Source of the DNA: Lachnospiraceae bacterium
GTDB taxonomy: Bacteria; Bacillota; Clostridia; Lachnospirales; Lachnospiraceae
Assembly: GCA_017525525.1 (NCBI GenBank)
Contig: JAFXSQ010000036.1
Span: forward strand, 31,223 to 95,222
Direction: 5' to 3'
Length of the DNA stretch: 64,000 nucleotides
A program made the translations under genes and the position numbers. Under the pieces are notes generated by a model, which was given only the letters and a program-made list of their open reading frames with translations, was not told the origin of the DNA and made no database searches. Shown one piece after another: positions 2,151-40,297 of this stretch. The number at the start of each line of letters is the position of its first letter. Positions within the stretch are counted from its first letter, which is position 1.

Positions 2151-2924
2151 ATGGATCAGGAAAAACGAATCAACGAATTGACGGAAGAAGTAGAAAGCCT
2201 AAAACGCCAGCTGGCCATCACGGCATCCCTAAAATATCACCTGATGCCGGATGCCTACCCTTTTTTTTCGGATATTTCGGAAATCGATATATATGCCGAT
2301 CAGATCAGCCTGGCTAAGGTGGGCGGAGATTTCTTCGATTTCTTTCGTATCGACCATGATCATATCGGTATTGTGGTGGCGGATATTTTTGACGGCGGGG
2401 ATGCGGCAGCCCTCTATATGATCGCCTTTAAACTTTATCTGATGGCTGAGCTTTCCACGGGCTTTACGCCTGCGGAGCTCATCGAGGCGGTCAACAACCG
2501 ACTGGCGGCGTCCAATGAAAGCAATTTATGCCTTTCGGCTTGGTTCGGTGTATACGAGCTTTCTACAGGAACCATCACGGCGGTGAATGCGGGACATGAG
2601 TCTCCGATTCTTGCTACATCAAAGGGGATACATGATTGCGAAAATGAAGAGGTCTCGTATCTGATGGCGGTGATCGAGAATATAACCTACGAAAGCTATG
2701 AGATCCGCATGGAACCCGGGGATACGCTGTTGCTTTACACCGACGGCGCGATCAAAGCCGGATTCACAAGAGAAAAAATGGGAGAGGTGCTCCTGCAAAA
2801 TCCCGACCAAAACGCAGAGGAGCTTGTGGGCGCTTTGCAGGATGCCATGATGGAAACGATCGGAGACGACAGATTGACGGACGACGCGACATTTTTGTGC
2901 TTTCGCAAGGAGGTGACAGCATGA
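2151..2924 (+). CDS. PP2C/SpoIIE-type (RsbU-like) serine phosphatase, no sensor domain
   Basis: A 257-aa soluble phosphatase expected to dephosphorylate a STAS-domain anti-sigma-factor antagonist. The ATG at 2151 was chosen because GAGGTGAT (2135-2142) sits 8 bp upstream and overlaps the alternative GTG at 2139. A short N-terminal coiled coil (about 1-25) leads into the PPM domain. Metal-binding aspartates are visible in VGGDFFDFF (about Asp60), VVADIFDGGD (about Asp78) and the terminal DDATFLCF. NAGHESP and LLLYTDGA are also typical. The usual VSGKG after the second Asp is changed to IFDGG. It lacks a sensory or membrane module, unlike the second phosphatase at 4564. First gene of locus A; its stop overlaps the next start. 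Confidence 0.85.
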   Translation: MDQEKRINELTEEVESLKRQLAITASLKYHLMPDAYPFFSDISEIDIYADQISLAKVGGDFFDFFRIDHDHIGIVVADIFDGGDAAALYMIAFKLYLMAELSTGFTPAELIEAVNNRLAASNESNLCLSAWFGVYELSTGTITAVNAGHESPILATSKGIHDCENEEVSYLMAVIENITYESYEIRMEPGDTLLLYTDGAIKAGFTREKMGEVLLQNPDQNAEELVGALQDAMMETIGDDRLTDDATFLCFRKEVTA

Positions 2925-3817
2925 GCTTTTTAAAATCGGTGTCTTCAAACGGTGAAATCTGTCTTTTTGATCATAACGGCAATTCAGTATGGCTTTCCGT
3001 AAACGACGAGGATGCAAGGCTGCTTGACTTTTCAATCCCGCCCGAGCATCGTGAAGAAGGTACGTATGCAGCGCTTATCTCGGTGGCGGAATCGGAGGCC
3101 TTTATAAACGGAAAGACAAGGATGATCTGTGATTTCCCGGACAGTGAAAAAGGATTACGCACTGCGCTCTCCGATGCGGAATATGCCATGGAAGAGTCTG
3201 ACAAAGTGATCTTCGTAAAAACAAGAGATCTGCTTTCCTCCGCCGGAGTGGAAAAGTCACTGCGCATGAAATTCCCGCAGGTCGAGGCGGTCAGTTTTTC
3301 GGATCTCGTCTCTTTTCAGCGGGAAGAGGTTGCCATGTTTCTGAACAAAGCCCGCTTCAGCGCGGATAAGGAAAGACTGAAAACAATCGACCCGGATATC
3401 AGCGCGGTTGCCTACGACGACAACTACGAAGCCCGTGCGATTTTGCTTGCTTCAAAAGAAGAGGACGAGATCCTCGTGGAGCTTTTGCTCGGTTTCTCGG
3501 CAAAGAAACCGCAGTATATCCTGGCGGTCTGTCAGAAATTTGCCGAGAGTTTGATTGAACAAAAACTGCAGGATCAATACCCGCGGATTTCCATGCTCAC
3601 ATTAAATGCAAATGTGGTTCCGCTACTGAAACGTTTGTTGGATAAGCAGTGCGTGCTGGAAACCGAAGCGCAGATTCTGCACGCCGAGAAAAAACTGACC
3701 GGAGGAGACTCCGCACCGGAGGAAACATCGGAGGCTGTGAAAGAAACGCATCCCTTGTCTCCGTATCAGAAAAATATAACAGAAAAATACATCTGGGCAT
3801 CAAAAAGGAAGGGGTAA
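2921..3817 (+). CDS. Degenerate tandem GNAT-like protein (unknown function)
   Basis: 298 aa; the ATG at 2921 overlaps the upstream stop (ATGA) and follows AAGGAGGTGAC. No named family is certain. Residues about 35-60 contain PPEHREEGTYAAL, which looks like GNAT motif A (acetyl-CoA pyrophosphate loop) with the R/Q-x-x-G-x-G/A core degraded. A second half starts near residue 160 with AVAYDDNYEARAIL followed by EDEILVELLLGFS, a strand pattern also seen in the proteins at 8463 and 36064 (e.g. MLIEQTAEDLLTVSYLY). I infer a tandem GNAT fold that may bind, not acetylate. The C-terminal about 50 residues look disordered. It lies between a phosphatase and its likely STAS substrate, so it is probably part of the same signalling unit. 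Confidence 0.55.
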   Translation: MSFLKSVSSNGEICLFDHNGNSVWLSVNDEDARLLDFSIPPEHREEGTYAALISVAESEAFINGKTRMICDFPDSEKGLRTALSDAEYAMEESDKVIFVKTRDLLSSAGVEKSLRMKFPQVEAVSFSDLVSFQREEVAMFLNKARFSADKERLKTIDPDISAVAYDDNYEARAILLASKEEDEILVELLLGFSAKKPQYILAVCQKFAESLIEQKLQDQYPRISMLTLNANVVPLLKRLLDKQCVLETEAQILHAEKKLTGGDSAPEETSEAVKETHPLSPYQKNITEKYIWASKRKG

Positions 3818-3820
3818 CAC

Positions 3821-4129
3821 ATGAAGGATTTGGAAACAAAGATTATTGAAAACGGAACGGAAGCCGAAATCGTAATGAACGGGAGATTGGACACTTCAAC
3901 CGCAAAGGATGCCAGGACATTGTTCGAGGATGTTGCCGGTCGCTTTGACAAGGTGACGCTGAACATGGAAGGGCTTACCTATTGCTCGAGTGCGGGAATC
4001 CGCTCCATTCGTCATATCTATAAGCTGATTAAGGAAAAGAAAGGAAAACTCGAAACAATTAATGTGTCTGATTCGGTGATGCAGATTTTTGAGATTACGG
4101 GAGTTACCGCCATTCTTTCCGTTGGCTAG
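3821..4129 (+). CDS. STAS-domain anti-anti-sigma factor (SpoIIAA/RsbV-like)
   Basis: A 102-aa single STAS domain. In partner switching the unphosphorylated form binds the anti-sigma kinase and releases its target; phosphorylation on a conserved Ser blocks binding. The motif YCSSAGIRSI places the probable phospho-acceptor at Ser57, by alignment with Ser58 of SpoIIAA. MNGRLDTSTA and FEITGVTAI are also typical. It starts 3 bp after the preceding stop. Neighbours are two phosphatases that could dephosphorylate it and a kinase (4181) that could phosphorylate it. No sigma factor gene is nearby, so the output is not evident. Confidence 0.88.
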   Translation: MKDLETKIIENGTEAEIVMNGRLDTSTAKDARTLFEDVAGRFDKVTLNMEGLTYCSSAGIRSIRHIYKLIKEKKGKLETINVSDSVMQIFEITGVTAILSVG

Positions 4130-4180
4130 GAAGCGATAGGTTACGAAGTAATCGAGTCATTTTTACGAGGAGGAATAGGC

Positions 4181-4588
4181 ATGAACAGTATGACTGTTAC
4201 CGCAGAAGAAGACAAATTGGATGAAGTGATCGATTTTGTCATGGACGAGCTTTCCGAATATGAGTTGGATGAAGATATTCAAATGCAACTTGAACTTGCC
4301 ATAGAGGAGATATTCGTGAATATTGTAAGCTATGCATATAATCCGAATGTGGGAGATGCGGAGGTGCATGTAGAGGTTAAGGAGAATCCGCTTTCGGTAG
4401 AGATCGGTTTTCTTGATTCCGGCGTGCCTTTTAACCCCCTTGAACAGGATGCGGATACCTCGAAGGAAGCGCTTGAAGACCATGAAGGCGGGTTGGGTAT
4501 TCACATGGTAAAAAAGCTAATGGATTCCGTGGCCTATACCTATGAAGACGGAAAGAATATATTATGGATAAAGAAAAGAATGGAATAA
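4181..4588 (+). CDS. RsbW/SpoIIAB-like serine kinase anti-sigma factor
   Basis: A 135-aa GHKL ATPase (HATPase_c) that would phosphorylate the STAS protein and sequester a partner protein. It shows the N box with Asn47 (LAIEEIFVNIVSYAY), the G1 box FLDSGVPFNP (Asp79) and the G2 box EGGLGIHMVKKLMD. The length fits RsbW-type kinases. AGGAGG lies 8 bp before the ATG. The 3' end overlaps the next gene by 25 bp, indicating translational coupling. Its sequestered target could be a sigma factor encoded elsewhere or one of the unusual locus A proteins. Confidence 0.87.
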   Translation: MNSMTVTAEEDKLDEVIDFVMDELSEYELDEDIQMQLELAIEEIFVNIVSYAYNPNVGDAEVHVEVKENPLSVEIGFLDSGVPFNPLEQDADTSKEALEDHEGGLGIHMVKKLMDSVAYTYEDGKNILWIKKRME

Positions 4589-6027
4589 GTGAAAATGTCT
4601 TATGGGAAAACGAAGTTACGGCAAACAGAGTTCTTACAATCATCCTGTTTCTTACGATCCTTTTAGTCGGAATTCTTTGGGCTATGCTCGAACTCGGCAT
4701 ATTCTATGTTGAGAAGACGGATTACAGGATCGTAAATGTTTTTAACGTTGCCCTATTGATCATCACAGGAATTATTTCCGTGCGCAACAAGTACGAAAAG
4801 CGATGGATCAAATATGCGTTGATATCTGTGCTGATCTATGTATATGCTACTAACTTTGCTATTTTTACTTACAATGCCGTACTGCTGATGGCAATTCCGA
4901 CGGTCATTTCGTGCCGTTATTATTCAAAAAAGCTAACGATCATCGTTGCCTGTGTTACCGTGGGACTGTTCCTGATTGCTACGGTTTACGGTTCGGTAAA
5001 CGGTGTATTGGATCTGAACTATCTGGAACTTTCAAAGGGGACAGTAATCGATTTCGGGGAGAATACCTGGTTAAGTGACGCCTTGGAGGGAGTATCCTAT
5101 GACAGGGAGCTTATGGTGAAAAACTCTCTGGGTTACGGTTACTTTATCCGATTCTTATGGTTTCTTATTATCATGGTAGTCTGTGCACGTATTTCCAATC
5201 AGGGAAGAAAGTTGATTCTGCGGCAGCAGGAGCTTTCGGATCATAAGGCACGCGTGAGCGCGGAACTCGATGTTGCAACCAACATTCAAGCAAGCATGTT
5301 GCCGAACCGTTTTCCGGCGTTTCCCGACAGGAAAGAGTTGGATATCTATGCTACCATGGAGCCGGCAAGGGAGGTCGGTGGCGATTTTTATGATTTTTAT
5401 TTGCTTGATCCGGACCATCTTGCACTGGTCGTAGCGGACGTATCAGGGAAGGGCGTTCCCGCAGCATTCTTTATGATGCAGGCAAAAACGATGATCAAAA
5501 TCAGTATTCAAAATGACCCGGATCCGGCGGCCACATTGTACGCGGTCAATACTATGTTATGTGATAACAATGATGAAGATATGTTTGTTACCGCATGGCT
5601 CGGTATTTTGGAGCTTTCTACGGGTAGGCTTACTTATTCGGATGCAGGGCATGAGAAACTGATCATACGCAAAAAAGGGGAATGGGAAATGCTTCCGAAA
5701 AAAGGAAAGAGTGCTCCCCTTGCCATGTTTGATGAGGAGGATATGGAAGATATGCCGGAGCTGGCATTTCTAAATAACACCGTATATTTAAACCCGCAGG
5801 ATATTATACTGCAGTATACGGACGGCGTGACGGAGGCTCAGACTGTGGATGAGGAAATGTTTGGTGAGGAGAGGCTTTTGGAGGCAGTTTCGGGACTTGA
5901 TACGGATGATCCGCGAGAAATTCTTTCCTGTGTACGTGCAAGGATGAACGAGTTTGTGAAAGATGCACCGCAATTTGACGATATTACAATGCTTTCGGTT
6001 GTATATAAAGGCTTATTTTTGAATTAA
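4564..6027 (+). CDS. Membrane PP2C phosphatase (RsbU/SpoIIE family) with multi-TM sensor
   Basis: A 487-aa signal-responsive phosphatase. Residues about 23-210 hold five or six hydrophobic segments with an extracytoplasmic loop near 143-190. A short coiled coil (about 212-240) then joins the phosphatase domain, with SMLPNRFP marking its start. Catalytic metal ligands are in VGGDFYDFY (Asp274) and VVADVSGKG (Asp292), both canonical, plus LQYTDGVTEA and FDDITMLSV. It overlaps the kinase gene by 25 bp. With the sensorless phosphatase at 2151 it gives the module two inputs, one membrane and one cytoplasmic, onto a single STAS protein (inference). The ligand is unknown. Confidence 0.88.
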   Translation: MDKEKNGISENVLWENEVTANRVLTIILFLTILLVGILWAMLELGIFYVEKTDYRIVNVFNVALLIITGIISVRNKYEKRWIKYALISVLIYVYATNFAIFTYNAVLLMAIPTVISCRYYSKKLTIIVACVTVGLFLIATVYGSVNGVLDLNYLELSKGTVIDFGENTWLSDALEGVSYDRELMVKNSLGYGYFIRFLWFLIIMVVCARISNQGRKLILRQQELSDHKARVSAELDVATNIQASMLPNRFPAFPDRKELDIYATMEPAREVGGDFYDFYLLDPDHLALVVADVSGKGVPAAFFMMQAKTMIKISIQNDPDPAATLYAVNTMLCDNNDEDMFVTAWLGILELSTGRLTYSDAGHEKLIIRKKGEWEMLPKKGKSAPLAMFDEEDMEDMPELAFLNNTVYLNPQDIILQYTDGVTEAQTVDEEMFGEERLLEAVSGLDTDDPREILSCVRARMNEFVKDAPQFDDITMLSVVYKGLFLN

Positions 6028-6039
6028 AGGAGGATGTGT

Positions 6040-8448
6040 ATGGGACAATTTGAAGAGTACCTTGAAAAGAAAAGACAACAGCAGGAGTCGGTGGAAGGGA
6101 CCATGGTGGATCTTGAACGCGATCTGGTCGAAAACCAAAAACTTCTGGGACTTGGAATGAATCCGGAAATAGAGGAGGATTCGGCCAACTTTGTAGAGGA
6201 AAACCTTCGTATGCGGAATGCGAAGAGCACCTTTGCCGAGCGTACCGATTATTATTTTAAAAATTCGGAATATATGGATGCGAAGACCGAACGATATCTC
6301 GGTTTGGCAGACGGAAAAGAACTGGATGCGTATGCCGAGAAGCATACAAATCGAAGTGCAAAAAAAAGGAAGGAAAATGCCCAAAAGGCTGCAATAAGCT
6401 TTGACAAGGCAAGAAGACTGGAAGAAAAGGCAAGAAGTCGAGAAGAAAACCCGGACGCGGCACCGCAGAAGCCCCTTGAGGTTTATCGCGAAAGGGAGGA
6501 GATCATGCGCGCCCGCATGGAAGGTATGATCAGCGCCGCGAAGGTAAAAAGTACAAGCGCGTCAAATGAGGAGTACCGTATCGCCAAGGCAAAGCTTTCC
6601 TGCCTTACCCTTCTGCTGGATCAGGCGGGGAACCTCCGTGAAAGAGAATCCAAGGATTTTGACAAGATCGAAAGAAATCTGAAAAAAGAAATCCTGGATG
6701 CGAGAAAGACCCTGAAAAAGTATGCATCCGATGCGGACGCCAAGTGGAAGGAATCTCTGGGGGCAAACGATACCGAAAAGCTTGACAAGATGGTAAAGGA
6801 TTCCGGAAATCCCTATGCCAAAAGGGAGCACGCGGAATTATCCCTGTTGATGAAAAGCATGGCTGTCGAGTATATGAGACCGGAGTATAAGGAGGCACAG
6901 AAATACGGAGAAGAGGTGTTTGGCAAAACCGTAGACTCCAGACGGGATCCTCTGGTTGCCGTCACTTATACGATCCGAAGGGACAAGAACGGGAAGCCCA
7001 TCAACCGCGAGGAATTAAAGAAGGAGCAATGGAACAACAATTGGCTGGAGGCTTGTAAGAATCCGAAGATGAAGTATGAGCGGCAGCGCATGATCATAGA
7101 GGCCTATCAAAGAATGACGCGCGTTGAGCTTCCCACACCGCAGGATCTGAAAAAACATGGCGCCCTCTATTATTTGAAAAAAAATCCGGTAGAGATTTGG
7201 GACCTTTACAAGATGACCCTGCGTATCGATAACCTGGCAGACTATGAGCCCATTTGCAGGGAGTACTGCTTAAATGACAAGCAGTTTAAATCACGCATGG
7301 AAACCGTTATGTATTTTACGCAAGTTTTAGACTTCGAGCTGAAGGAAAACTACAATCTGTATGAAAGCAAAAATTTTGAAATCTATCCGGGAGATCAGCA
7401 TGAGGGGGAAACGGAAGAGGAAAAAGCGGAAGTCATAAGACAAAAACGAGATAATATGGAGCGTTCTTTAAAGGCCTATGAAGATACCTATGACAGGATC
7501 AAGGTGGCGGATGATTTAAGGGCCGCGGAAGATGAGGAATACAGATACAATAAAACACTTAGCTATGTAGAAATAAAGGAAAAAGCGGACAGTCTCGGAA
7601 ATAGACAGTTTAACAAGGAGTCCTATGAGAAATACAAGCAAATTAAGGAATCCAACAAAGCGCTGGAAAACCCGCAGTACAGAGCGCTGTATGCGCCGAT
7701 CCATAAAAAGCTGGGATCGGATCGGGATATTTCCCGTGTGTGCGGCGCCATGCTTCGCTCGGTAAAATTTGATCAAAACTGGATGCCTGTTTCCGAGGAA
7801 GATATGAAGGCACATGAGTGGAACATGAAGTATTTGAACAATCTTTCCACCTACACGCTGGGATTTGAGTTAGATGCGATGGACCTGCGTGAAAAAAAAG
7901 AGCTTGAAGAAGAAGGAAGGACGACGGCGGAAAACAATAAGATCATACGAAAACTGGAAGAAAAAAAGGCAAAAAGTGAAGCAATCCTAAAAGAGATGGT
8001 AATGGAGGAGTTTACGAGGTCCTTCTCCGGCGCAGGGTCCTATCCGCTGCCTACACCGGAGCAGCTGAAAAAAGAACTGTATGAACCGTTAAAAAACGGT
8101 CAGCCGCTTGACGCACCGTGCATGGAAAACGTCATGAAGAATATTTCGAAATATTCGACCATGGCACAAAAGTCACTTTGTATGGAGGGAACGACCAAGA
8201 ATCTGCCCTTTGTACAGGAGTTTGTAGACAGCCACCCGGAATTCCTTGCACTTCAAAAGGCACAGAGTACTTTTTCGATGATCGTGGATTCCTATTACAA
8301 CAGTAAATACCATGTATCACCGAATACCGGCTCGAATGTAAAGGTGGATTTAGCTATGCCGCTTGTTCCGGAAACACTAGAGTTTTTTATCACACAGTTT
8401 GAAGAAGCATATAACAAATTCCGTGAATTGACAGGCAGCGGACAGTAG
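6040..8448 (+). CDS. 802-aa charged, largely helical protein (unknown)
   Basis: I do not recognise a family. The start at 6040 is favoured because AAGGAGG ends at 6033, 6 bp before this ATG, and directly abuts the alternative ATG at 6034. The protein is very rich in Lys, Glu and Arg with long stretches of predicted helix or coiled coil (about 1-60, 100-160, 190-250, 640-680). It has no signal peptide, membrane segment or obvious catalytic motif. It begins 12 bp after the phosphatase stop and is followed by a GNAT-like gene. A protein of almost identical length (803 aa) and composition lies at 37886, again beside a GNAT-like gene. I infer a scaffold or output protein of the signalling module; similarity between the two needs a profile comparison. 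Confidence 0.6.
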   Translation: MGQFEEYLEKKRQQQESVEGTMVDLERDLVENQKLLGLGMNPEIEEDSANFVEENLRMRNAKSTFAERTDYYFKNSEYMDAKTERYLGLADGKELDAYAEKHTNRSAKKRKENAQKAAISFDKARRLEEKARSREENPDAAPQKPLEVYREREEIMRARMEGMISAAKVKSTSASNEEYRIAKAKLSCLTLLLDQAGNLRERESKDFDKIERNLKKEILDARKTLKKYASDADAKWKESLGANDTEKLDKMVKDSGNPYAKREHAELSLLMKSMAVEYMRPEYKEAQKYGEEVFGKTVDSRRDPLVAVTYTIRRDKNGKPINREELKKEQWNNNWLEACKNPKMKYERQRMIIEAYQRMTRVELPTPQDLKKHGALYYLKKNPVEIWDLYKMTLRIDNLADYEPICREYCLNDKQFKSRMETVMYFTQVLDFELKENYNLYESKNFEIYPGDQHEGETEEEKAEVIRQKRDNMERSLKAYEDTYDRIKVADDLRAAEDEEYRYNKTLSYVEIKEKADSLGNRQFNKESYEKYKQIKESNKALENPQYRALYAPIHKKLGSDRDISRVCGAMLRSVKFDQNWMPVSEEDMKAHEWNMKYLNNLSTYTLGFELDAMDLREKKELEEEGRTTAENNKIIRKLEEKKAKSEAILKEMVMEEFTRSFSGAGSYPLPTPEQLKKELYEPLKNGQPLDAPCMENVMKNISKYSTMAQKSLCMEGTTKNLPFVQEFVDSHPEFLALQKAQSTFSMIVDSYYNSKYHVSPNTGSNVKVDLAMPLVPETLEFFITQFEEAYNKFRELTGSGQ

Positions 8449-8462
8449 GAGGATAAGATCGA

Positions 8463-9275
8463 ATGAATTATATAAGAATTGATGCGACAAATTTAGACGG
8501 TTTCACCTCGGTCCTTCCGGCAAGCTATTTTGACGGAGCGGGTATCTGCCTGGGTGCTTACGAGGAAGACGGAAGCGTGTGTGGCGCCATTGCTCTGTCT
8601 TATGACGGCGTGCAATATGATATCGACTGGCTGTATGTGGTCGGAGAAAAGCGTCTTGCCGGCGTGGGAACCGGACTTATAAGGGAGGTAAAGCACATTG
8701 TTGCGGAACTGGGCGTTGCACCGATTCGTGCGCAATTTGATATCGAAGAGGATACCGGACTGTACGCCTTCTTTCTGTCCATGGATGATCCGGATTTCAC
8801 GGTAGATGTGGCGTATTCCCATAATCGTTATTTTTCAAATACAGAGGATTTTATAGAGAGCTTTGGCGGAGGAGATTTCTTGAAGCTTCCCCGGCCGCGC
8901 CTGTTCTGGAGCCTGAAGGAGGAGCTGAAAGATCAGGCACTGAGTCTGGCGATGGAGCATCTGGAGATCACGGACGCCGAACGGTTTGAAAGCTCCTGCG
9001 AGAAGACCCTTTGTCTTGCGGTAAGTGACGGGGAGATCGTAAACAGCTTTATGATGGTGCAGCACACACCCTCCGGAGATCTGTCCCTTTCGTACCTTTA
9101 CGCAAAGGATCAAAAGGCGCTGGTAGGCATGCTGAAGGCAGCGGCCATCGAGGCGCAGGAAAACTTTCACGACAAAAACATCTTCTTTGATGCCGTCACC
9201 GATGAAGCGGAGGCTTTGGCAGATAAGATTTTGCCCGGTGCAATAAGGCATGCGGTCTATGAGGTCGAATTATAG
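8463..9275 (+). CDS. Tandem GNAT-like protein
   Basis: 270 aa. The N-terminal half resembles an acetyltransferase of the GNAT fold: strand-rich AIALSYDGVQYDIDWLYV, then GEKRLAGVGTGLI (about 61-73), a motif A acetyl-CoA loop. The C-terminal half (about 175-270) repeats the strand pattern SFMMVQHTPSGDLSLSYLY followed by a long helix, and matches in style the C-terminal unit of the protein at 36064. The second unit lacks a clear acetyl-CoA loop. It follows the 802-aa protein by 14 bp and ends locus A. Isoleucine codons here include 4 ATA among 16, unlike locus B genes. Substrate unknown. Confidence 0.6.
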   Translation: MNYIRIDATNLDGFTSVLPASYFDGAGICLGAYEEDGSVCGAIALSYDGVQYDIDWLYVVGEKRLAGVGTGLIREVKHIVAELGVAPIRAQFDIEEDTGLYAFFLSMDDPDFTVDVAYSHNRYFSNTEDFIESFGGGDFLKLPRPRLFWSLKEELKDQALSLAMEHLEITDAERFESSCEKTLCLAVSDGEIVNSFMMVQHTPSGDLSLSYLYAKDQKALVGMLKAAAIEAQENFHDKNIFFDAVTDEAEALADKILPGAIRHAVYEVEL

Positions 9276-9330
9276 TCTGAAAGCTATGATCATAAACAGC
9301 GGCATTTGCCGCAAAAGAAAGTAGAACCAT

Positions 9331-9516: not shown

Positions 9517-9542
9517 ATATATAGTAAAAACTTAAAAATCGC

Positions 9543-9602: not shown

Positions 9603-9644
9603 GGTGTGTTTGTCATGCAATTAAATAAAACGGAGGTGGAGGAA

Positions 9645-9794: not shown

Positions 9795-9808
9795 TAAAGG
9801 AGTTAGCT

Positions 9809-10624: not shown

Positions 10625-10636
10625 GAGTTATGCAGA

Positions 10637-30095: not shown

Positions 30096-30115
30096 TCTGC
30101 GGAGGTATGTAAGGC

Positions 30116-33508: not shown

Positions 33509-33547
33509 AATAGTCAGCGTCGGGGATGTTCGGTGTGAATTGGATTT

Positions 33548-33620
33548 TGAAAAAGATTCTTCGGGCTTAAGCGCTCAGAATGACACGTGGTGTCACTCTG
33601 AGCGCAGCGAAGAGTTTTAA
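33548..33620. repeat. Dispersed repeat, inverted pair
   Basis: GCGCTCAGAATGACAC and GTGTCACTCTGAGCGC face each other around GTG, flanked by AAAGATTCTTCG and CGAAGAGTTTT. Lies between the fusion kinase and the double-receiver gene. Confidence 0.7.
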
Positions 33621-33635
33621 TCAGAGAGAGGCTCT

Positions 33636-34394
33636 ATGAATAATCTGTTGTTGATCGGAAAACCAAATGAAGATCTGGTAAGCTTAAACGAAGCGCTTGC
33701 GGACTGCTATAATGTTCAGTATGCATCGGAGAACCCTTCTGCCCTTGCGGGTGTATTAAAGCTTGCAAAACCGGACGTGGCAGTGGTTTTGCTTGTGGGC
33801 TTAACTGAGGGTTATGAGGCTATATTTATCATGCTTGATACGTCGCTTCCGAAGGTTCCGGTAATCATGATAGGAACCATGGAGGAGCATATGCAGTTTG
33901 AGCGCTTTGAGCGAGAGGAGCGTTACGGTATTCTCATGCGTCCGTTCAAGAACAGGGATATACTGGATATGGTAAAAAAGACGATTGAAAAATACAGTTT
34001 GATGGGCAAGAAGAGGATTCTTGTTGTTGATGATGACGGACTGCAGCTCAGGAATATTAAAAGCATCCTTGAGGATACCTACGAGATATCCCTTGCTAAC
34101 TCGGGCTTAAAGGCCCTTACCAGCATGGGCAAGAACAGACCTGACCTTATCCTGCTTGATTACGAGATGCCCGTGTGCAACGGTAAGAAGACCTTAGAGA
34201 TGATACGTGCCGAAAAGGAGTATGATGATATTCCGGTTGTATTCCTGACAGGACTCAGCAGTGAGGCGCATATCCGTTCGGTGCTTGACTTAAAGCCGGC
34301 CGGGTATCTGTTAAAGCCGCCCGAGCCCAAGGTTCTGCATGAAAGGCTGGCAGAGATTCTCAGTAAAGCAAAAGAAAATGATGATGAAGAATAA
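33636..34394 (+). CDS. Double-receiver response regulator (first receiver degenerate)
   Basis: 252 aa. The C-terminal receiver (about 127-245) is complete: RILVVDDDG acidic pocket, acceptor Asp175 in LILLDYEMPVCNG, FLTG and LLKPPEP. The N-terminal half (about 3-115) has the same fold pattern (NLLLIGKPNED ... VPVIMIGT ... ILMRPFKNRD), but the acceptor strand reads VAVVLLVGLTEG with no Asp. It has no DNA-binding or enzymatic output. It could be the phosphate acceptor of the two upstream kinases (inference). AGAGAGG precedes the ATG. Confidence 0.85.
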   Translation: MNNLLLIGKPNEDLVSLNEALADCYNVQYASENPSALAGVLKLAKPDVAVVLLVGLTEGYEAIFIMLDTSLPKVPVIMIGTMEEHMQFERFEREERYGILMRPFKNRDILDMVKKTIEKYSLMGKKRILVVDDDGLQLRNIKSILEDTYEISLANSGLKALTSMGKNRPDLILLDYEMPVCNGKKTLEMIRAEKEYDDIPVVFLTGLSSEAHIRSVLDLKPAGYLLKPPEPKVLHERLAEILSKAKENDDEE

Positions 34395-34406
34395 GTATGT
34401 AATATG

Positions 34407-34435
34407 AAAGCAAGGACAGATGTCCTTGCTTTTTG
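34407..34435 (+). terminator. Terminator between the receiver gene and the 517-aa gene
   Basis: AGCAAGGAC / GTCCTTGCT with a 4-nt loop, then TTTTTG. It separates the kinase part of locus B from the helical/GNAT part. Confidence 0.8.
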
Positions 34436-34445
34436 TCAATAAAAA

Positions 34446-34499
34446 AAGACGAGAAAAGATTCTTCGGACTTGCGCAGCAACAGGAAGGAGCTTAAACAG
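34446..34499. repeat. Degenerate dispersed repeat copy
   Basis: AAAGATTCTTCGGACTTGCG and the GGAGCTTAAACAGG tail resemble the copy at 24720, with the middle decayed. Confidence 0.4.
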
Positions 34500-34510
34500 G
34501 AGGGATAAAA

Positions 34511-36064
34511 ATGGACGAGGAGTTACAGAGTAAGCAAGTAATGACAGAGGAGCAGCTTTTTAAGGACCTGCAGGGAGAGACTGTGGACGGCGGCACCTGG
34601 AAGCATCTTGTGAGTATTCCGGGTGAGCTTGTGCACATGGGGCCGACCTTGAAGCTCAAGAAGTTTTCAAGTCTGTCAAAGGATGAACAGGATGCCGAGG
34701 AACAGCACTATAAGGAATTAAAGGCTGCGAATACATTTGTCAAGAATGCGGAGCTTAACTCTCCGTACATGCGTAAGGTGCTTGAAAAAACGGTGAAGAT
34801 CGGCGGGGAGAAAATCACCCAGGAGGAGCTGCTCAACAAGGTAAGGGGCGGAGACTATTCGCATATGCAGCAGCTTGATTCCGTGCTGAGGAATCGCGCT
34901 GCGACGGAATACATGCTTGCGCACCCGATACCTGAGAATGTAACGCCGGAGGAATTTATTGAAAACTTCAAGACAGAAGCTAAAGCGAGCAGAAAGGATC
35001 CGGTCTCCGAGATGCTGAATCCGCTTTTTCGCATGGGCATATCTTTGATGATCAATTCCAAGGCTGTGCTTCCTAAGGTCGCGGAAAGGTATCGCAAGAT
35101 AGACGACCTTCTCAATAAAGAAATCATGATGGCTACGATCACAAAGAGAAAATGTAGAATTGATGAAGGCAGTGAGGAAGACAAACAGCGAAATGTCCGC
35201 TCACAGGTATTCATTATGAAGACACTTTTTACCAGTCATCTCGGACGCCTTCAGATGAAGAAGAAGGACGGAAACCCGCCGTCAAAGGACTGGCCTTATT
35301 CCGTGGCCAATGCATTCACTCACTGCTCACGTGTGATGATAACTCTTCCGGGCAGTCGCTCTAAAGAAGACTATTACGGTGAGCCGGGTTTTAAAAAGCG
35401 AGGCGGCGCAACCCACAATTTGGAGCTTAAAAGAAAGGATGCCACGAAGGGCGCAGAGGAGAAGAAATCATTTACCCCCTTTAACCAGTTCGGCATGAAT
35501 ATTGCGGTCGGGGGCTTGGGAAACAACGGAATACCGGCAGGGAAAAACAAAAGGAAGATTAAGAACGACGGCTCCTGCGGACATCTGTATATGCACTTTG
35601 AAAAGGGGGATGAAGAGAAGCATAGCGGAATGCTTATAGGCTTTGAAAGCGATGCCTATGGTGTTATGAACCAGACGGGGCACGTACACGACTTAAAGGC
35701 TACGGGTGAATTCGCCTCAAGCTTCGGAGGGCAGCGCTGCGATGAAATCGGAGATAAGTACGGCGGGCGTGAGGTCGATCTTTCGAAGATGGATCCGGAT
35801 GCTTACATCGCGGTAATGAACCTGCTTGATAGTGTGGCTACAAGACTTCTGTTGTCCGAAAGAGGTGATAACGAGGACGCGGATGCGGATCATCAGATAA
35901 AGCTTAATAATATAGCGGAAAAGCTCTGCGGAAATCTTATGGAAGGAGAGCAGCTGAGAAGCTTTATTCAAATGCTTTACGAATACAGTGGGGCATCCGA
36001 TGCTGTCGGAGACAGTATCGATATGTACAGCAGGCTTTATGATGACGAAGGAGATGAATTATAA
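34511..36064 (+). CDS. 517-aa protein of unknown function, helical N half and Gly-rich C half
   Basis: No family recognised. Start follows AGGAGGGAT. Residues about 1-250 are charged and mostly helical. Residues about 255-425 are different: FTHCSRVMITLPGS, FNQFGMNIAVGGLGNNGIPAG, NDGSCGHLYMHF, HSGMLIGFESDAYGVMNQTG, HVHDLKATGEFASSFGGQRC. Recurrent Gly, His and Cys and alternating strands suggest a compact, possibly enzymatic, beta-rich domain. No signal peptide or membrane span. The stop overlaps the start of the multi-GNAT gene by 1 bp, so the two are coupled and belong with the 803-aa protein that follows. Confidence 0.55.
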   Translation: MDEELQSKQVMTEEQLFKDLQGETVDGGTWKHLVSIPGELVHMGPTLKLKKFSSLSKDEQDAEEQHYKELKAANTFVKNAELNSPYMRKVLEKTVKIGGEKITQEELLNKVRGGDYSHMQQLDSVLRNRAATEYMLAHPIPENVTPEEFIENFKTEAKASRKDPVSEMLNPLFRMGISLMINSKAVLPKVAERYRKIDDLLNKEIMMATITKRKCRIDEGSEEDKQRNVRSQVFIMKTLFTSHLGRLQMKKKDGNPPSKDWPYSVANAFTHCSRVMITLPGSRSKEDYYGEPGFKKRGGATHNLELKRKDATKGAEEKKSFTPFNQFGMNIAVGGLGNNGIPAGKNKRKIKNDGSCGHLYMHFEKGDEEKHSGMLIGFESDAYGVMNQTGHVHDLKATGEFASSFGGQRCDEIGDKYGGREVDLSKMDPDAYIAVMNLLDSVATRLLLSERGDNEDADADHQIKLNNIAEKLCGNLMEGEQLRSFIQMLYEYSGASDAVGDSIDMYSRLYDDEGDEL

Positions 36065-37881
36065 TGATTGAGATATATGATTTAAGCGAGGAGGATCCCA
36101 CACCCTTCTGCGAGTTTATGACAAGTGAGGCGCAGGCGATGCTTAATACCGACAGCTGTTCGGCGGTCGGTATAAGCGAGGACGGAACTCCGGTGGGCGC
36201 GGTGGTTGCCAACATAAAGAATTCGGATGCAGCCGGCATTGTCTCACTTTTTGTGAAGGAGGATAGAAGGAGACGGGGCTACGGTACCGAGCTGATATAC
36301 CGAGTGCTGACATTGCTGTCCAGAAAGGAAGATTTGAGCCGTATAGAAGCAGACTTTGCCGTGACAGAGGGAGATGACAACGGACTTTATGAATTCTTCT
36401 CGGCTCTGGACTTCAAGCTTGAAGCCGATGACATGCATGGCGCATTTATGATAAGTCTTGCGGAGGCTGCAGAAAGTGAAATCTTTAAGAAGGCTTCATC
36501 TCACGGTGTCACGCCTTATTCTAAGGCGACGCTTCAGAGTAAGAATATGATTAAGGCTGCGCACCCTATGTTGAACAGTGTTGAGATAGATGAGAAGGTA
36601 AGCTGTGTTGCCACAGCCGGCGGTGAGGGGGACAGCTGTCCGGACTGCCTGCTCTTTACAAAGGAAGAGGACACGCTTGTGATGGTGTGGGCAGATTCTT
36701 CGGAGGACAAGCTTAATTTAGTAAGGATGCTCAAATTCGCTGTGGAAGAAACAATAAAAGCATACGGGGTGCAGACGAAGGTTCGGATTCCGTACATTAA
36801 CGAGAATTCAAAGAAGCTTATAGTAAAGATGATGGGCGAAAAGGCTGTTACGGCGGAAACCGTGTGGAACGCGGCGCTGCCCGTGTTTGACAGGGGAGAG
36901 GTGGAGGAAAGCGAAGCGCAGACGCAGGCTTCGCCTAAGGCGGAAAAGATGAATAACAAACAAAGGAGAGGGAAAATGAATTACCTGGTCAGATTAGGGA
37001 AATCGGACTTGAAGCTATTTGAAGGCTTCCTTTCAGCTGAAACCAGGGAGAGTGTGCTTGAGGATGACACACTTTCGGTAATAGGCTTTTGCTCCGGAGA
37101 TACGGCCTGCGGCGCGGCCGTTTTAAGATTTATGCCCGAGGAAAGCGAACTCTACTGGTTGAATATGGCGCCGGAGGTAAGAAACGGCTCGGATGACCAT
37201 AGCTTTTTTACAAAGCTGCTTACTCTTCTATGCAGGGAAGGCAATGACAGTGTATCGGTGCTTCTTCCCGTAGGCGAAAATGTCTGGGCTCAGGATTTGT
37301 TTAAGGTGTTTGGCATAACCTATGAAGACTCCGGAACAGGTGTAATACACACGACCTTAGAGCGCTTCTTAGGCGGTGGTTTTGCGCCGAAGAAGCCTTC
37401 GAAAAATTGCAAGGCATTGACGGATGTAACCGATAAAGAGCTTTCCTACATCTGCGGCGCAGCGATTAAGGCAGGTGTTGATTATGTTAAGCTTCCGATA
37501 AACCGAGCCGATTATTCGGGTACATTAAGCGCGGTATCCTATGAGGACGGAAAACCGGTGGGGATAATGCTTATCGAGCAGACGGCGGAGGATCTGCTCA
37601 CGGTGTCGTACCTTTATACCACTACCCCCAATCCGAGCGCTGTGCTTGAACTCATAAGATATGCATCAGAAGCAATAGCAGCTGCTTATCCGCCGGAAAC
37701 GAGGATAGATATTCCATTTGTCGAAAAGAAGATTGTGGAGATGACGGAGACAAAGGGCAATCCGCTTTCGATAGTAAGGAACAAAAGAGGAAGGATTTCT
37801 CTTGATTATATTAAAAGCGCTATGGAAAGAGCACAGGCAGAAATGGAAACGGAATTGATGCTTAAGGGACAAGGGAGGTAG
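36064..37881 (+). CDS. Multi-unit GNAT-like protein
   Basis: 605 aa. Residues 1-145 form a convincing GNAT domain with motif A VKEDRRRRGYGTELI (about 64-78). A second unit (about 175-290) has CLLFTKEEDTLVMVWAD, then a helix. A third region begins near residue 305 after a Lys/Arg-rich link (NKQRRGKMNYLVRLG) and ends with a fourth unit SAVSYEDGKPVGIMLIEQT and LLTVSYLYTT, which matches the pattern in the locus A proteins at 2921 and 8463. Only the first unit keeps a good acetyl-CoA loop. Internal ATG 36976 follows AGGAGAGGG and could give a shorter product. ATA is the commonest Ile codon in the first half (9 of 15 counted). Confidence 0.6.
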   Translation: MIEIYDLSEEDPTPFCEFMTSEAQAMLNTDSCSAVGISEDGTPVGAVVANIKNSDAAGIVSLFVKEDRRRRGYGTELIYRVLTLLSRKEDLSRIEADFAVTEGDDNGLYEFFSALDFKLEADDMHGAFMISLAEAAESEIFKKASSHGVTPYSKATLQSKNMIKAAHPMLNSVEIDEKVSCVATAGGEGDSCPDCLLFTKEEDTLVMVWADSSEDKLNLVRMLKFAVEETIKAYGVQTKVRIPYINENSKKLIVKMMGEKAVTAETVWNAALPVFDRGEVEESEAQTQASPKAEKMNNKQRRGKMNYLVRLGKSDLKLFEGFLSAETRESVLEDDTLSVIGFCSGDTACGAAVLRFMPEESELYWLNMAPEVRNGSDDHSFFTKLLTLLCREGNDSVSVLLPVGENVWAQDLFKVFGITYEDSGTGVIHTTLERFLGGGFAPKKPSKNCKALTDVTDKELSYICGAAIKAGVDYVKLPINRADYSGTLSAVSYEDGKPVGIMLIEQTAEDLLTVSYLYTTTPNPSAVLELIRYASEAIAAAYPPETRIDIPFVEKKIVEMTETKGNPLSIVRNKRGRISLDYIKSAMERAQAEMETELMLKGQGR

Positions 37882-37885
37882 CGTA

Positions 37886-40297
37886 ATGGATGAAAATCAG
37901 GTAGTGCAGCCGGTGGTTATGCAGCCGGTGATAAAGCAGGCGGATTTTGAAAACTTTACGGAAATGAGTGATGAGCAGCGCTTTCTGGAAGGAATGACAG
38001 CGGAAAAGGGCTTGAAGGAATTCGACAGACACTGGACTCATATAGAAAGGCTTACAGAGGAGTGGAAGGAAACTCCTTTACTCAAAAAGGTAAACAAAAC
38101 AGCTGAGGCTCCTGCGCAGCCCGTGGAGGACGAATCAAAATTAGGAATGAAGGAAAGGCGCAGACGGCGCAAGGAGAGAGCCAGACAGGAGGCGGAAAAA
38201 GAACGGACAGAGAAGGAGAAAAAAAGAATCCATCTGACGGCTGTTGAAATAATATCGCAAAACATCGATGAAAAACCCCAGGATTTGCATGAAGAGTTTT
38301 CGGCGCAGACAGGTTTTCCCGACCTTCATTTTTACAGTAAAAGTTCTTATGAAGCCTTGATTATGCTTCAGAAGGATATAAGAAAGGGGCAAGAGGGTTA
38401 TCTTAAGAATAAGGCTGTGGTGGACAGGATATTTTCGGATGCGGTCAAGTATTTGCAGATGTTCGACAGACTATCGCAGATAATGGGAGCCTCTGCGCTG
38501 GCTCAATTCGCGGATGAGGTTGTGAACAGTCCCGATCATGCTGCGCTTCAGAAAGAGATAGAGCATGAAACGAATAAGCTTCTTGCCAGGTCACTGACTA
38601 TTTCAAACAGGATAGAAGCGCTTCACGGATGTATCCGTTATCTCACGAGAAATGAAGAGGTAGACGGCATATCCATGCAGCTTCTTGCCGAGTATACGAA
38701 AGACGCGGCATTTGAAGAACAAAAGAAGCAGAACATAGAGGATGCCAGAGCTTTTCTGGATATTACAAAAGCAGAAGAAGAAAGGAAGGAGACTAAGGAA
38801 GAAAAGGACAAGAGGCTTGCTGCTGTCTGCAAGGAACTGATGACAGTTGACGAACAGGCGTTGAGTGTATATGCGCGCAACCCCGAAAAGCAGGTAGGCA
38901 TGGTTAATTTTGCCATAGCGGCGGATGAGCTGCTTAGATTGTCTTCGGAGGAAAAAAAGAAGCTTTTTGTTAAACCCGAAGGAAGTGACTTAAGCGATGA
39001 AGCTTTTATCGCAATCATGGAATCAAAGCTTGAAGTCATGAGGTCCTATGGTAAGATTGCGCGAGCCCGCCTGATACTAAGGGCGGTTATGTCCTCTGAC
39101 AGTATACCACCTCAGGAATTAATGACGGATGAGGAGCTTGACAATTATTTAACAGGCTATGAAGCCGGCTCCGTAGCGGATATTCTGTGCGCATTTGCAA
39201 GGGATATGATAGCTGAGGCTTACGCCGAATTGGAAACCCCTGACAGAAAGCTGCTAACCTCAATGGATGTGCTTAAGTATCTCACAGAAGTCGGTCCGGA
39301 AAGCAAGCTTAAGGATGAATGCTTCAGTCTAAACAAAGACAACCTTCAACAATACTATGATCTTATTGATGAAAAAGGAGCGGTTTTGAAGGCGCAGCAC
39401 GATGAGGAAGTAAAGGCGCGGCAAGCTGAGGGTAAAGAAGAAAAGAAGAAAGAACCGCCCTTTGATGCGAGAAACGAGGGCGCTAAGGCAATCTACCGTG
39501 AGGCCTGTGAAAAGCTTGCCGACAAAAAGTGGGTCGAGGAAAACCCGGATGAGGCAAAGCGACAGGAAGAGATAAGAAGAAACGTAGAAATTGTGGTCGG
39601 CGTCAGCATGAGAAATCTGACGATACCCGGGGAAAAAGCTGCTTTTCTTCCGGAGCCGTTCGCTCGCTCATTTATAGCCTCACAGCAGTATGATTCCTTC
39701 CGCAGCATGAAGGATGAAGAATATGTGGATATGATGAGCAAGGTTGCCGCAGGCGCATTTCTGGATGAAAAATCATCGGAAGAAGAAATAGCGAAGGCGA
39801 AAGCGTTACAGAAGGAAGGAATAGAAAAGTATTACGAGAAGACACTTGAACACTATGATATGCTTGAGCAAAGATTCGGTTACGAAATCCCGAGTCTTGG
39901 CTATATTGTGGAGCACTTAGGTGAGATTCAGACTTTTTCGGCAAATACGCAGGTCGATCTCAATATGATCACAGCAGATAAAACGGTGTTGACTTTAAGA
40001 AATGCAGATCATGAGAAGCTGATTCATCTGGTTAACTTTTACTCCGCTTATTTCCAGTGGATACTGGGAATGTGGATGGATGTCAGAGGTGATATGGGCA
40101 CTTACAATGCAATTACCGATGAGAGCGAAAGGAAGTCAATACTTGAGAATATGTATGAGAAAATGAAAAACAACCTTGAGCAGAACAAAAAAACCTTCCT
40201 GAAAGATTTCAAAGTCGAAAAAGATTTGGATTGGCTGCGCAACATAGGCACAAGGCGAAGGAGAGATAAAGAAAAGGCTAGAAAACAAATGAACTAG
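37886..40297 (+). CDS. 803-aa charged, largely helical protein (unknown)
   Basis: No family recognised. Start follows GGGAGGT and lies 4 bp after the GNAT gene. It is Lys/Glu-rich with coiled-coil stretches, notably a basic block KERRRRRKERARQEAEKERT (about 89-108) and segments near 280-315 and 520-570. It has no signal peptide and no transmembrane helix, though residues about 705-730 are more hydrophobic (FYSAYFQWILGMWM). The length equals that of the locus A helical protein (802 aa), and both sit next to GNAT-like genes. I infer related roles as scaffolds or outputs; direct homology is not obvious by eye. Confidence 0.6.
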   Translation: MDENQVVQPVVMQPVIKQADFENFTEMSDEQRFLEGMTAEKGLKEFDRHWTHIERLTEEWKETPLLKKVNKTAEAPAQPVEDESKLGMKERRRRRKERARQEAEKERTEKEKKRIHLTAVEIISQNIDEKPQDLHEEFSAQTGFPDLHFYSKSSYEALIMLQKDIRKGQEGYLKNKAVVDRIFSDAVKYLQMFDRLSQIMGASALAQFADEVVNSPDHAALQKEIEHETNKLLARSLTISNRIEALHGCIRYLTRNEEVDGISMQLLAEYTKDAAFEEQKKQNIEDARAFLDITKAEEERKETKEEKDKRLAAVCKELMTVDEQALSVYARNPEKQVGMVNFAIAADELLRLSSEEKKKLFVKPEGSDLSDEAFIAIMESKLEVMRSYGKIARARLILRAVMSSDSIPPQELMTDEELDNYLTGYEAGSVADILCAFARDMIAEAYAELETPDRKLLTSMDVLKYLTEVGPESKLKDECFSLNKDNLQQYYDLIDEKGAVLKAQHDEEVKARQAEGKEEKKKEPPFDARNEGAKAIYREACEKLADKKWVEENPDEAKRQEEIRRNVEIVVGVSMRNLTIPGEKAAFLPEPFARSFIASQQYDSFRSMKDEEYVDMMSKVAAGAFLDEKSSEEEIAKAKALQKEGIEKYYEKTLEHYDMLEQRFGYEIPSLGYIVEHLGEIQTFSANTQVDLNMITADKTVLTLRNADHEKLIHLVNFYSAYFQWILGMWMDVRGDMGTYNAITDESERKSILENMYEKMKNNLEQNKKTFLKDFKVEKDLDWLRNIGTRRRRDKEKARKQMN

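What the first reader, a model, noticed from the sequence alone, without database searches (positions are those of the whole stretch)
2151..40297. Loci A and B share a design: signalling genes + GNAT-like array + about 800-aa helical protein
Locus A (2151-9275) and the right part of locus B (34511-40297), 25 kb apart, each contain a charged helical protein of 802 or 803 aa beside a GNAT-like protein with the same strand motif, and each is joined to phosphosignalling genes (partner switching in A, hybrid kinases and receivers in B). This recurrence suggests one unnamed protein system hooked to different sensors.
Basis: partly seen in the sequence, partly recalled or inferred. Interest (0 to 1): 0.85.

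Follow-up and report, generated by a model that had tools for sequence, protein, structure and literature searches.

The report
Scattered cargo loci of bacterial syringe
The two gene groups look like two of roughly twenty scattered cargo stations for a phage-tail-like molecular syringe that this bacterium encodes elsewhere, each pairing a large, sometimes toxin-like protein with members of one family of two-domain acetyltransferase-like helper proteins, which may be how the syringe recognises its cargo.

Summary
The two ~800-aa proteins and their GNAT-like neighbours exist as described. What A and B share is the GNAT family, not the 800-aa proteins: P0001 (804 aa) and P0002 (803 aa) show no detectable kinship, and the kinases beside B are not conserved with it. 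Locus A's partner-switching genes are.

The genome encodes a PVC-type contractile injection system (CIS) on another contig. The GNAT family occurs inside that CIS locus and in CIS operons of two other genera. In all 37 genomes of the genus, 7 of 7 CIS-positive genomes carry the family against 1 of 30 others at E<=1e-6; in 392 genomes of the order, 9 of 10 carriers are CIS-positive. This genome has 28 family genes, often beside large charged proteins. Of 42 candidate cargo proteins scanned (28 here), 11 (6 here) carry calpain, ADP-ribosyltransferase, ABC1-kinase or Ntox11 domains; P0005 in B carries Ntox11.

Best reading: A and B are dispersed CIS cargo loci; the tandem GNAT-like protein is a cargo adaptor (inferred). 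Against: G363 has the family without a detected CIS; no structure prediction; loading unshown.

The parts
2139..2924 (+). SpoIIE-type phosphatase of locus A (partner switching)
   Evidence: Pfam SpoIIE E 1.5e-32; 80% identical gene in the G012 copy of the locus and 68% in G018
2897..3817 (+). P0006, probable degenerate tandem GNAT-like protein; no acetyl-CoA motif found
   Evidence: No Pfam hit; matches the family's second-domain model weakly, E 1.5e-5; orthologues L024_13 (47%) and L028_1 (46%) are not reached by the model
3821..4129 (+). STAS-domain protein (anti-anti-sigma type)
   Evidence: Pfam STAS E 2.7e-11; 64% orthologue in G012
4181..4588 (+). HATPase_c_2 protein (switch-kinase type)
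   Evidence: Pfam E 2.5e-23; 62% orthologue in G012
4564..6027 (+). SpoIIE-type phosphatase with a hydrophobic N-terminal half (membrane-anchored, read from the sequence)
   Evidence: Pfam SpoIIE E 7e-45 at residues 283-479
6034..8448 (+). P0001, 804 aa (802 from the conserved start at 6040): charged protein, candidate CIS cargo or cargo subunit
   Evidence: Kin beside tandem GNATs in L011, L012, L024, L025, L026; after the CIS AAA+ gene in a G018 contig; and inside the 2453-aa ABC1-kinase protein L137_2 of G351
8463..9275 (+). P0003, tandem GNAT-like protein next to P0001; has the acetyl-CoA motif
   Evidence: Acetyltransf_1 20.8 bits, cut-off 20.7; family model E 2.4e-39, a training row; kin co-diverge with P0001 kin (r 0.95; 5 of 120 permutations as high; five pairs)
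34408..34434 (+). Terminator-like hairpin between the receiver gene and the locus B operon
   Evidence: 10-bp inverted repeat plus T run read in the sequence printed; not reported by the pattern scan
34511..36064 (+). P0005, 517 aa, Ntox11 toxin-like domain at residues 227-442: candidate CIS cargo
   Evidence: PF15521 E 5.5e-42; 63% orthologue in G012
36064..37881 (+). P0004, 605 aa: two tandem GNAT-like units in a row; has the acetyl-CoA motif
   Evidence: Acetyltransf_1 E 5.6e-12; the family's second domain found twice, at 174-261 and 451-562 (the latter a training row)
37886..40297 (+). P0002, 803 aa: charged protein, candidate CIS cargo
   Evidence: 49% orthologue in G012; region 576-745 shared with L014_8 (1497 aa, 310 nt from a GNAT gene) and L030_2
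28011..34394 (+). Two hybrid kinases and a receiver protein: neighbours of locus B, judged not part of it
   Evidence: Pfam; absent from the orthologous G012 place

Best explanation
Loci A and B are two of roughly twenty dispersed cargo loci of a PVC-type contractile injection system (CIS) encoded elsewhere in the same genome. Each pairs one or more large charged cargo proteins (A: P0001; B: P0005 with an Ntox11 domain, and P0002) with members of one family of tandem GNAT-like proteins (P0003 and probably P0006; P0004 = two units). Proposed working: the cargo is made in the cytoplasm; its cognate tandem GNAT-like protein binds it and presents it to the CIS (AAA+ ATPase and baseplate/tube), which loads it and on contraction delivers it into another cell; SpoIIE/STAS/HATPase partner switching, found both at A and in CIS loci, times expression or firing. 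Shown: gene content, homology, linkage and co-occurrence. Inferred: that P0001, P0002 and P0005 are loaded; that the GNAT-like protein is an adaptor (about 0.42; lowered from 0.45 after a recount found the acetyl-CoA motif in 18, not 16, of 28 genes) rather than a modifying enzyme or immunity protein; the direction of signalling; and the target cell.
For: (1) CIS in this genome (L044/L045): Pvc16_N 7.8e-29, PAAR-like DUF4280 1.5e-33, sheath 2.3e-18, tube gp19 4.5e-32, spike OB 3.9e-20, CIS_tube 4.9e-14, gp25 7.9e-16, Baseplate_J 7.6e-8, Tail_P2_I 1.6e-11. (2) Family members lie upstream on the same strand in the CIS locus of G000 and G012 (L055_2-4; L056_5-7), and in G240 one co-directional run holds CIS structural genes, the CIS AAA+ ATPase, four family genes, charged proteins, STAS and SpoIIE; in G118 a family gene follows the CIS AAA+. 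(3) Co-occurrence: genus, 7 of 7 CIS+ genomes carry the family, 1 of 30 CIS- at E<=1e-6 (G018, which has a CIS-operon fragment), 2 of 30 at E<=1e-3. Order: 9 of 10 carriers are CIS+, against 18 of 382 non-carriers; Fisher 8e-11; 1e-9 without G000, 5e-5 counted by genus. (4) 28 family genes in the fetched G000 stretches; 15 of 28 have a >=400-aa, >=30% charged partner within 300 nt on the same strand; 18 of 36 neighbours against 14 of 233 other genes are of that kind (P 3e-10). (5) 11 of 42 candidate cargo proteins scanned in seven genomes have an enzyme or toxin domain above cut-off (6 of 28 in this genome): calpain 5, ABC1 kinase 4, ADP-ribosyltransferase 1, Ntox11 1. (6) A P0001-like gene follows the CIS AAA+ gene in G018; P0001-like sequence and the kinase sequence of L011_10 are fused in L137_2. 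(7) Ntox11 was listed with PVC export in Zhang 2012 (PMC3482391, one passage).
Against: G363 carries 6 family matches but no Pvc16_N and no sheath. G018 has no sheath match (80% complete). 18 of 27 CIS+ genomes of the order have no family match (at most 10 candidates a genome were scored there, so some may be missed), so the family is not general to CIS. Loci A and B do not touch the CIS operon. P0001 and P0002 have no enzyme domain, and 31 of 42 candidates have none above cut-off. DUF4157, often near known eCIS toxins (PMC11297309, passage), matched none of the 42. 13 of 28 family genes have no strict large charged neighbour. No fold was available. The model was built partly from genomes G000, G012, G014 and G016; without them the genus test rests on 3 of 3 against 1 of 30 (P 7e-4).
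Confidence: 0.75

Rival explanations
1. The GNAT-like proteins are modifying enzymes: they acylate the cargo before export, as the HlyC/ApxIC group, of which ApxIC has a GNAT-like fold, activates RTX toxins, and the loci are activation cassettes.
For: The first domain is a GNAT by sequence (best PDB match the N-terminal acetyltransferase 4pv6, 6.4e-10); the acetyl-CoA motif was found in 18 of 28 genes in at least one of two scans, including P0003 and P0004. ApxIC: PMC8339906, passages.
Against: 10 of 28 lack the motif in both scans, and at L011, L090, L092 and L095 no family gene with it was found; the feature that defines the family here is the second domain.
Confidence: 0.23
2. The GNAT-like proteins are immunity proteins protecting the producer or its kin from the paired toxin.
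For: Adjacency and co-divergence with the partner.
Against: One family accompanies unrelated domains (calpain, ADP-ribosyltransferase, ABC1 kinase, Ntox11), whereas immunity proteins usually change with the toxin domain (general knowledge); several family genes lie in CIS operons, some beside the AAA+ gene.
Confidence: 0.12
3. The loci are not cargo loci: the large proteins work inside the producing cell (for example as scaffolds of a stress or signalling body with the partner-switching proteins), and the tie to the CIS is a lineage effect.
For: Locus A has the genes of a stress-type switch; G363 has the family without a detected CIS; P0001 and P0002 have no toxin domain.
Against: Presence of family and CIS varies together within three genera (g1, g26, g33), with G363 of g26 as the exception, and across four; physical linkage to CIS operons in g1, g26 and g33; toxin-type domains in some paired proteins.
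Confidence: 0.12
4. A type VII secretion system exports these proteins (a DUF4176 gene lies beside L014 cargo and a gene that looks similar beside L134 cargo).
For: DUF4176 E 2.6e-26 in L014_12; its tie to type VII secretion is recalled, not tested.
Against: YukC (PF10140) absent from 41 of 41 genomes searched, this one included.
Confidence: 0.03

Closest known systems
Extracellular contractile injection systems of the PVC/Afp type and their effectors
   Same: Same kind of structural gene set including Pvc16_N, DUF4280 PAAR-like, sheath, tube, spike, baseplate and an AAA+ ATPase; toxin-like cargo; Ntox11 previously listed with PVC export (PMC3482391, passage).
   Different: Candidate cargo is spread over many loci; much of it is very large (about 400 to over 3000 aa); no DUF4157; cargo genes stand beside tandem GNAT-like genes. 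The words GNAT and acetyltransferase do not occur in the main text of PMC11297309, nor 'N-acetyl' in PMC8213781.
Pvc15 AAA+ loading ATPase with N-terminal signal peptides
   Same: An AAA+ gene sits in or beside CIS operons (L052_2, L098_2, L128_8 by Pfam; L130_6 by similarity).
   Different: In PVC, loading is mediated in part by 50-70-residue disordered N-terminal signal peptides and needs Pvc15 (PMC11495950, passages); here a further family accompanies the cargo. An N-terminal MD[EDNG] is enriched (10 of 42 family-adjacent charged ORFs against 25 of 504 others), but the pattern was chosen after looking, and no common signal was shown.
T6SS effector adaptors and chaperones (Eag, Tap/DUF4123, PRR; recalled)
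   Same: Cognate proteins encoded beside large effectors, presumed to present them to the injector.
   Different: No sequence relation tested; GNAT-like first domain here.
HlyC/ApxIC toxin-activating acyltransferases
   Same: GNAT-type protein encoded beside a large toxin.
   Different: Two-domain, acetyl-CoA motif seen in 18 of 28 only, associated with a CIS.
RsbU-RsbV-RsbW partner switching
   Same: SpoIIE phosphatase, STAS and HATPase genes together at locus A.
   Different: No sigma-factor gene in the locus; associated with candidate CIS cargo.

Membership tests
PVC/Afp-type eCIS (the genome's system) | Sheath, tube, PAAR-like tip, spike, gp25, baseplate J and the eCIS-specific Pvc16 | tested here: met
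   L044/L045 Pfam hits
PVC/Afp-type eCIS (the genome's system) | AAA+ ATPase | tested here: met
   L098_2 PF00004 2.4e-27 on a separate contig of G000; in the CIS operon in G014 and G240 by Pfam and G118 by similarity
eCIS effector (P0001, P0002, P0005) | Encoded in or next to a CIS operon | tested here: not met
   Window loci lie on another contig than the CIS; only kin of P0001 (G018) and of the GNATs lie in CIS loci
eCIS effector (P0001, P0002, P0005) | Toxin or enzyme domain | tested here: inconclusive
   Met for P0005 (Ntox11); none in P0001 or P0002
eCIS effector (P0001, P0002, P0005) | DUF4157 in or near the protein | tested here: not met
   No DUF4157 among Pfam hits of loci A and B or of the 42 candidates
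eCIS effector (P0001, P0002, P0005) | Loaded into the particle and injected | not testable with these tools
   Needs experiment
GNAT superfamily (P0003, P0004) | Pfam GNAT domain above cut-off in the first domain, with the acetyl-CoA loop | tested here: met
   20.8 bits (cut-off 20.7) and 46.4 bits; motif present
GNAT superfamily (second domain, and P0006) | GNAT homology | tested here: inconclusive
   Second domain against first: hhalign probability 3.6%, E 0.012; PDB matches only at chance level, best E 0.47; P0006 no Pfam hit
RsbUVW partner switching (locus A) | Phosphatase, STAS and HATPase genes | tested here: met
RsbUVW partner switching (locus A) | Sigma factor in the operon | tested here: not met
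   No sigma factor among the seven genes of 2139-9275
Type VII secretion | YukC/EssB | tested here: not met
   0 of 41 genomes
HlyC-type toxin-activating acyltransferase | Catalytic His/Ser pair and acyl-ACP use | not tested
   -

The most novel reading that the evidence does not exclude
A tandem GNAT-like family is the dedicated cargo adaptor of a CIS: with a member beside each cargo gene, a single injection system in one bacterium serves some twenty scattered, modular cargo loci (calpain, ADP-ribosyltransferase, ABC1 kinase, Ntox11, giant charged proteins of up to over 3000 aa), with partner switching to time it.
Probability: 0.42. Interest if true: 0.85.

Novelty: new variant of a known kind. 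Interest (0 to 1): 0.72.

Why it matters
eCIS effectors are usually sought next to the structural operon. If a shared helper family marks cargo genes anywhere in a genome, the cargo of a CIS can be listed by searching for the helper, and the question of how a CIS selects its cargo becomes directly testable. It would also point to Clostridia of this order as carriers of a large, dispersed injection arsenal; I found no description of one in the searches named in the report.

Tried and rejected
Rejected: that P0001 and P0002 are one family; hhalign of P0001 and P0002 families with the CIS-locus protein L055_1, and of P0005 with both, was also negative. Rejected: a common cargo domain; the P0002 region 576-745 is shared by four proteins only. 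Rejected: type VII secretion. Rejected: kinases 28011-34394 as part of locus B. Led nowhere: PDB sequence searches with the P0001, P0002 and P0005 alignments gave only weak matches (best E 0.031, 0.0061 and 0.082) that I take as chance; P0003 has no match in the plasmid or phage collections; P0001 kin none in viral contigs and one record in the named genome collection (RUG655, whose contig matches G012). NCBIfam gave nothing above a curated cut-off for the seven proteins given. Small acidic proteins beside some cargo (L055_0, L090_6) recalled YbjN or type III chaperones to me, but Pfam gave no hit. Mended on checking: the acetyl-CoA motif count (16 of 28 in each of two scans that looked at different residues, 18 of 28 in at least one) and the neighbour count (four ORFs seen twice or in pieces dropped); L088_0 and L089_5 are two pieces of one protein over 3000 aa, of which only the second was scanned with Pfam. 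Papers: searches (listings with titles and abstract starts); none of the listed titles or abstract starts concerns GNAT proteins with a CIS. Passages were read of PMC3482391, PMC11696984, PMC11297309, PMC8213781, PMC11495950 and PMC8339906; no paper whole.
Full report
What is in the window. Locus A (2139-9275) is a run of seven co-directional genes: SpoIIE phosphatase, P0006, STAS, HATPase_c_2, membrane SpoIIE, P0001 (804 aa) and P0003. Locus B is three tightly packed genes, P0005 (517 aa, Ntox11), P0004 (605 aa, GNAT) and P0002 (803 aa) at 34511-40297. The hybrid kinases and receiver before it (28011-34394) are separated from it by a terminator-like hairpin (34408-34434, read from the sequence; the scan did not report it) and are missing from the orthologous place in G012, where ROK (95%) and PTS enzyme I (94%) lie directly before the P0005 orthologue and VTC (87%) and DUF4956 (95%) follow the P0002 orthologue.

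Are the two ~800-aa proteins related? Not detectably. hhalign of the two family alignments gives probability 0.7% and 0.2% with wider sets; the alignments are shallow, so distant kinship is not excluded. Both are charged (0.36 and 0.35 of residues K, R, E or D). P0001 has kin of 804-815 aa, but also kin within an 846-aa and a 2453-aa protein; P0002 has kin of 774, 1021 and 1497 aa. So equal length is not a shared design.

Are the GNAT-like proteins related? Yes. They form one family of mostly 270-330 residues: a GNAT domain followed by a second conserved domain. A model of the second domain built from 18 rows hit, at E<=10 among the ORFs then held, only GNAT-like candidates and the 477-aa L053_2; it finds P0004 twice and P0006 weakly (E 1.5e-5). 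It does not reach four other GNAT-like proteins, L024_12, L024_13, L028_1 and L057_2. The second domain's fold is open: hhalign with the first domain gives probability 3.6%, E 0.012, and PDB sequences match it only at chance level. The first domain matches N-terminal acetyltransferases in the PDB (4pv6, 6.4e-10). The acetyl-CoA loop pattern is present in 18 of 28 genes of this genome in at least one of two scans.

The link to an injection system. Kin of P0001 and of P0002 were found in 3 of 61 genomes, the own one included. Testing secretion systems gave none for type VII (0 of 41) but a contractile sheath in 11 of 41 genomes, G000 and G012 among them. The locus in G000 is a PVC-type CIS: Pvc16_N, DUF4280, sheath, tube, spike OB fold, CIS_tube, gp25, Baseplate_J and Tail_P2_I. 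Upstream on the same strand and contig lie a 1006-aa charged protein and three tandem GNATs, two of which fall in one BLAST cluster with P0003 and P0004 (L055_1-4; likewise in G012). In G018 a P0001-like gene (L029_5, E 1e-7; its continuation L028_4, E 2e-25) follows the CIS AAA+ gene (L029_4, 71% to that of G014) and a CIS-type kinase.

Co-occurrence. All 37 held genomes of the genus were searched with Pvc16_N (7 positive) and with the second-domain model (9 positive at E<=1e-3): all 7 CIS+ genomes are carriers (27, 4, 6, 7, 31, 11 and 1 matches for G000, G023, G014, G016, G012, G027, G030). The two other carriers are G018 (19 matches; 80% complete; CIS-operon fragment, no sheath) and G031 (one match at 7.6e-4, probably chance). 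In an even sample of 392 genomes of the order, 10 are carriers at E<=1e-5 (at most 10 candidates a genome were scored, so weak carriers may be missed) and 27 are CIS+; 9 are both. The exception is G363 (6 matches, no Pvc16_N, no sheath at E<=1). 18 CIS+ genomes are not carriers. Fisher P: 7.8e-7 for the genus at E<=1e-6, 3.5e-6 at E<=1e-3 and 8.2e-11 for the order; 7e-4 for the genus without the four genomes that fed the model, 1e-9 for the order without G000, 5e-5 by genus. These tests do not model phylogeny, but carrier state and CIS vary together within genera g1, g26 (but for G363) and g33.

Physical linkage elsewhere. In G240 (another genus) a co-directional run holds the CIS structural genes, family genes L127_15, L128_1, L128_5 and L128_7 with charged proteins between them, the CIS AAA+ (67% to that of G014), STAS and SpoIIE. 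In G118 a family gene follows the CIS AAA+. In G351 a 2453-aa protein, a family gene (E 1e-4), STAS, an HATPase (38% to the window's) and another family gene (3e-24) stand in a row, an independent version of locus A. In G363 family genes also stand beside charged proteins (L132-L135), without a detected CIS.

The arsenal. I fetched 16 further G000 stretches around matches. Over the G000 stretches examined, 28 ORFs match the family at E<=1e-3 (8 of them fed the model; the genome search counted 27 matches, P0004 twice), at some 23 places. Of 36 same-strand non-family neighbours within 300 nt, 18 are >=400 aa and >=30% charged, against 14 of 233 other genes in the same stretches (P 3e-10); 15 of 28 family genes have such a neighbour and 13 do not (the first count, included four ORFs seen twice or in pieces). 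Of 42 candidate cargo proteins scanned with Pfam (28 in G000, 14 in six other genomes), 11 pass a cut-off for a catalytic or toxin domain: in G000 calpain in L101_9 and L102_11, ABC1 kinase in L011_10 and L096_6, ADP-ribosyltransferase in L099_3, Ntox11 in P0005; elsewhere calpain in L052_7, L053_6 and L024_3, ABC1 kinase in L053_3 and L137_2. Some of the 42 are not direct neighbours of a family gene, L013_18 is a fragment, L089_5 is a piece, and L098_3 may be a structural CIS protein (similar to L052_3 in the G014 CIS operon). Cargo is modular: L137_2 joins a P0001-like part (about 597-857) to a part like L011_10 (1113-2080); in this genome the P0001-like L011_9 and the kinase-bearing L011_10 are adjacent separate genes. 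This makes P0001 plausible as a cargo subunit without its own enzyme domain.

How it probably works. Shown: homology, linkage and co-occurrence. Inferred: each tandem GNAT-like protein binds its neighbour and presents it to the CIS. For an adaptor speak the constant second domain across unrelated cargo domains, the absence of the acetyl-CoA motif in 10 of 28, places where no family gene with the motif was found (L011, L090, L092, L095), and co-divergence of P0001 kin with P0003 kin (r 0.95, 5 of 120 permutations as high; five pairs only). An enzymatic role like that of HlyC/ApxIC (PMC8339906, passages) remains open, as does immunity. After the recount of the motif I lowered the adaptor reading from 0.45 to 0.42 and raised the enzyme rival from 0.20 to 0.23. 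Partner switching may set when cargo is made or the CIS assembled; no sigma factor is in locus A, so its output is unknown.

Known and new. The CIS is a member of a known kind. Ntox11 was listed with PVC export in 2012 (PMC3482391, one passage) and a distant relative was proposed in a Legionella effector (PMC11696984, passages). In PVC, loading is mediated in part by N-terminal signals and needs Pvc15 (PMC11495950, passages), and DUF4157 has been proposed as an eCIS-toxin chaperone (PMC11297309, passage); none of the 42 candidates here has DUF4157. Searches for papers with contractile injection and acetyltransferase or GNAT, Lachnospiraceae, rumen or partner-switching listed nothing whose title or abstract start describes this. 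The library holds openly licensed papers only.

Limits. Habitat of the window's organism, target cells, loading and toxicity are untested.

Noticed in passing
L013:19043-19471 (own genome, contig C57, near its end): A 142-aa ORF joins the N-terminal ~85 residues of the P0001 family to residues ~510-570 of it: an internally deleted remnant.
   Followed up: partly
L137:805-8166 (G351): A 2453-aa protein joins P0001-like sequence to an ABC1 atypical-kinase region that is a separate neighbouring gene in the window's genome (L011_9 and L011_10).
   Followed up: yes
L014:16583-18933 (own genome): A 674-aa protein with Gly/Ala-rich repeats followed by a DUF4176 gene stands after two tandem GNATs; a small gene that looks similar (L134_3) stands beside cargo in G363. 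YukC is absent, so the usual type VII reading of DUF4176 (recalled) does not fit.
   Followed up: no
L055:209-748, L090:8382-8882, L052:13086-13556: Small acidic proteins of about 155-180 aa lie directly beside some cargo genes and may be a second class of cargo partner; no Pfam hit for the first two, the third not scanned.
   Followed up: partly
window 59419-59505 (+): GA-cis RNA (RF02987, 48.8 bits).
   Followed up: no
window 9483-9499: Palindrome GGGGACACCGTGTCCCC in a strong terminator-like hairpin after locus A; a related CACCGTGTCCCC stretch lies before locus A, at about 2060.
   Followed up: partly
L010, L012, L092, L103 (own genome): Several ORF starts carry the same peptide (…KCEGLRSNRK… or close to it), pointing to a dispersed DNA repeat in this genome.
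   Followed up: no
L100:1-9297; L088 and L089 (own genome): Two charged proteins of over 3000 aa beside tandem GNATs: L100_0 (cut by the stretch end) and the one whose pieces are L088_0 and L089_5; they share long regions with each other and with L131_2; no Pfam hit for L100_0 or L089_5.
   Followed up: partly
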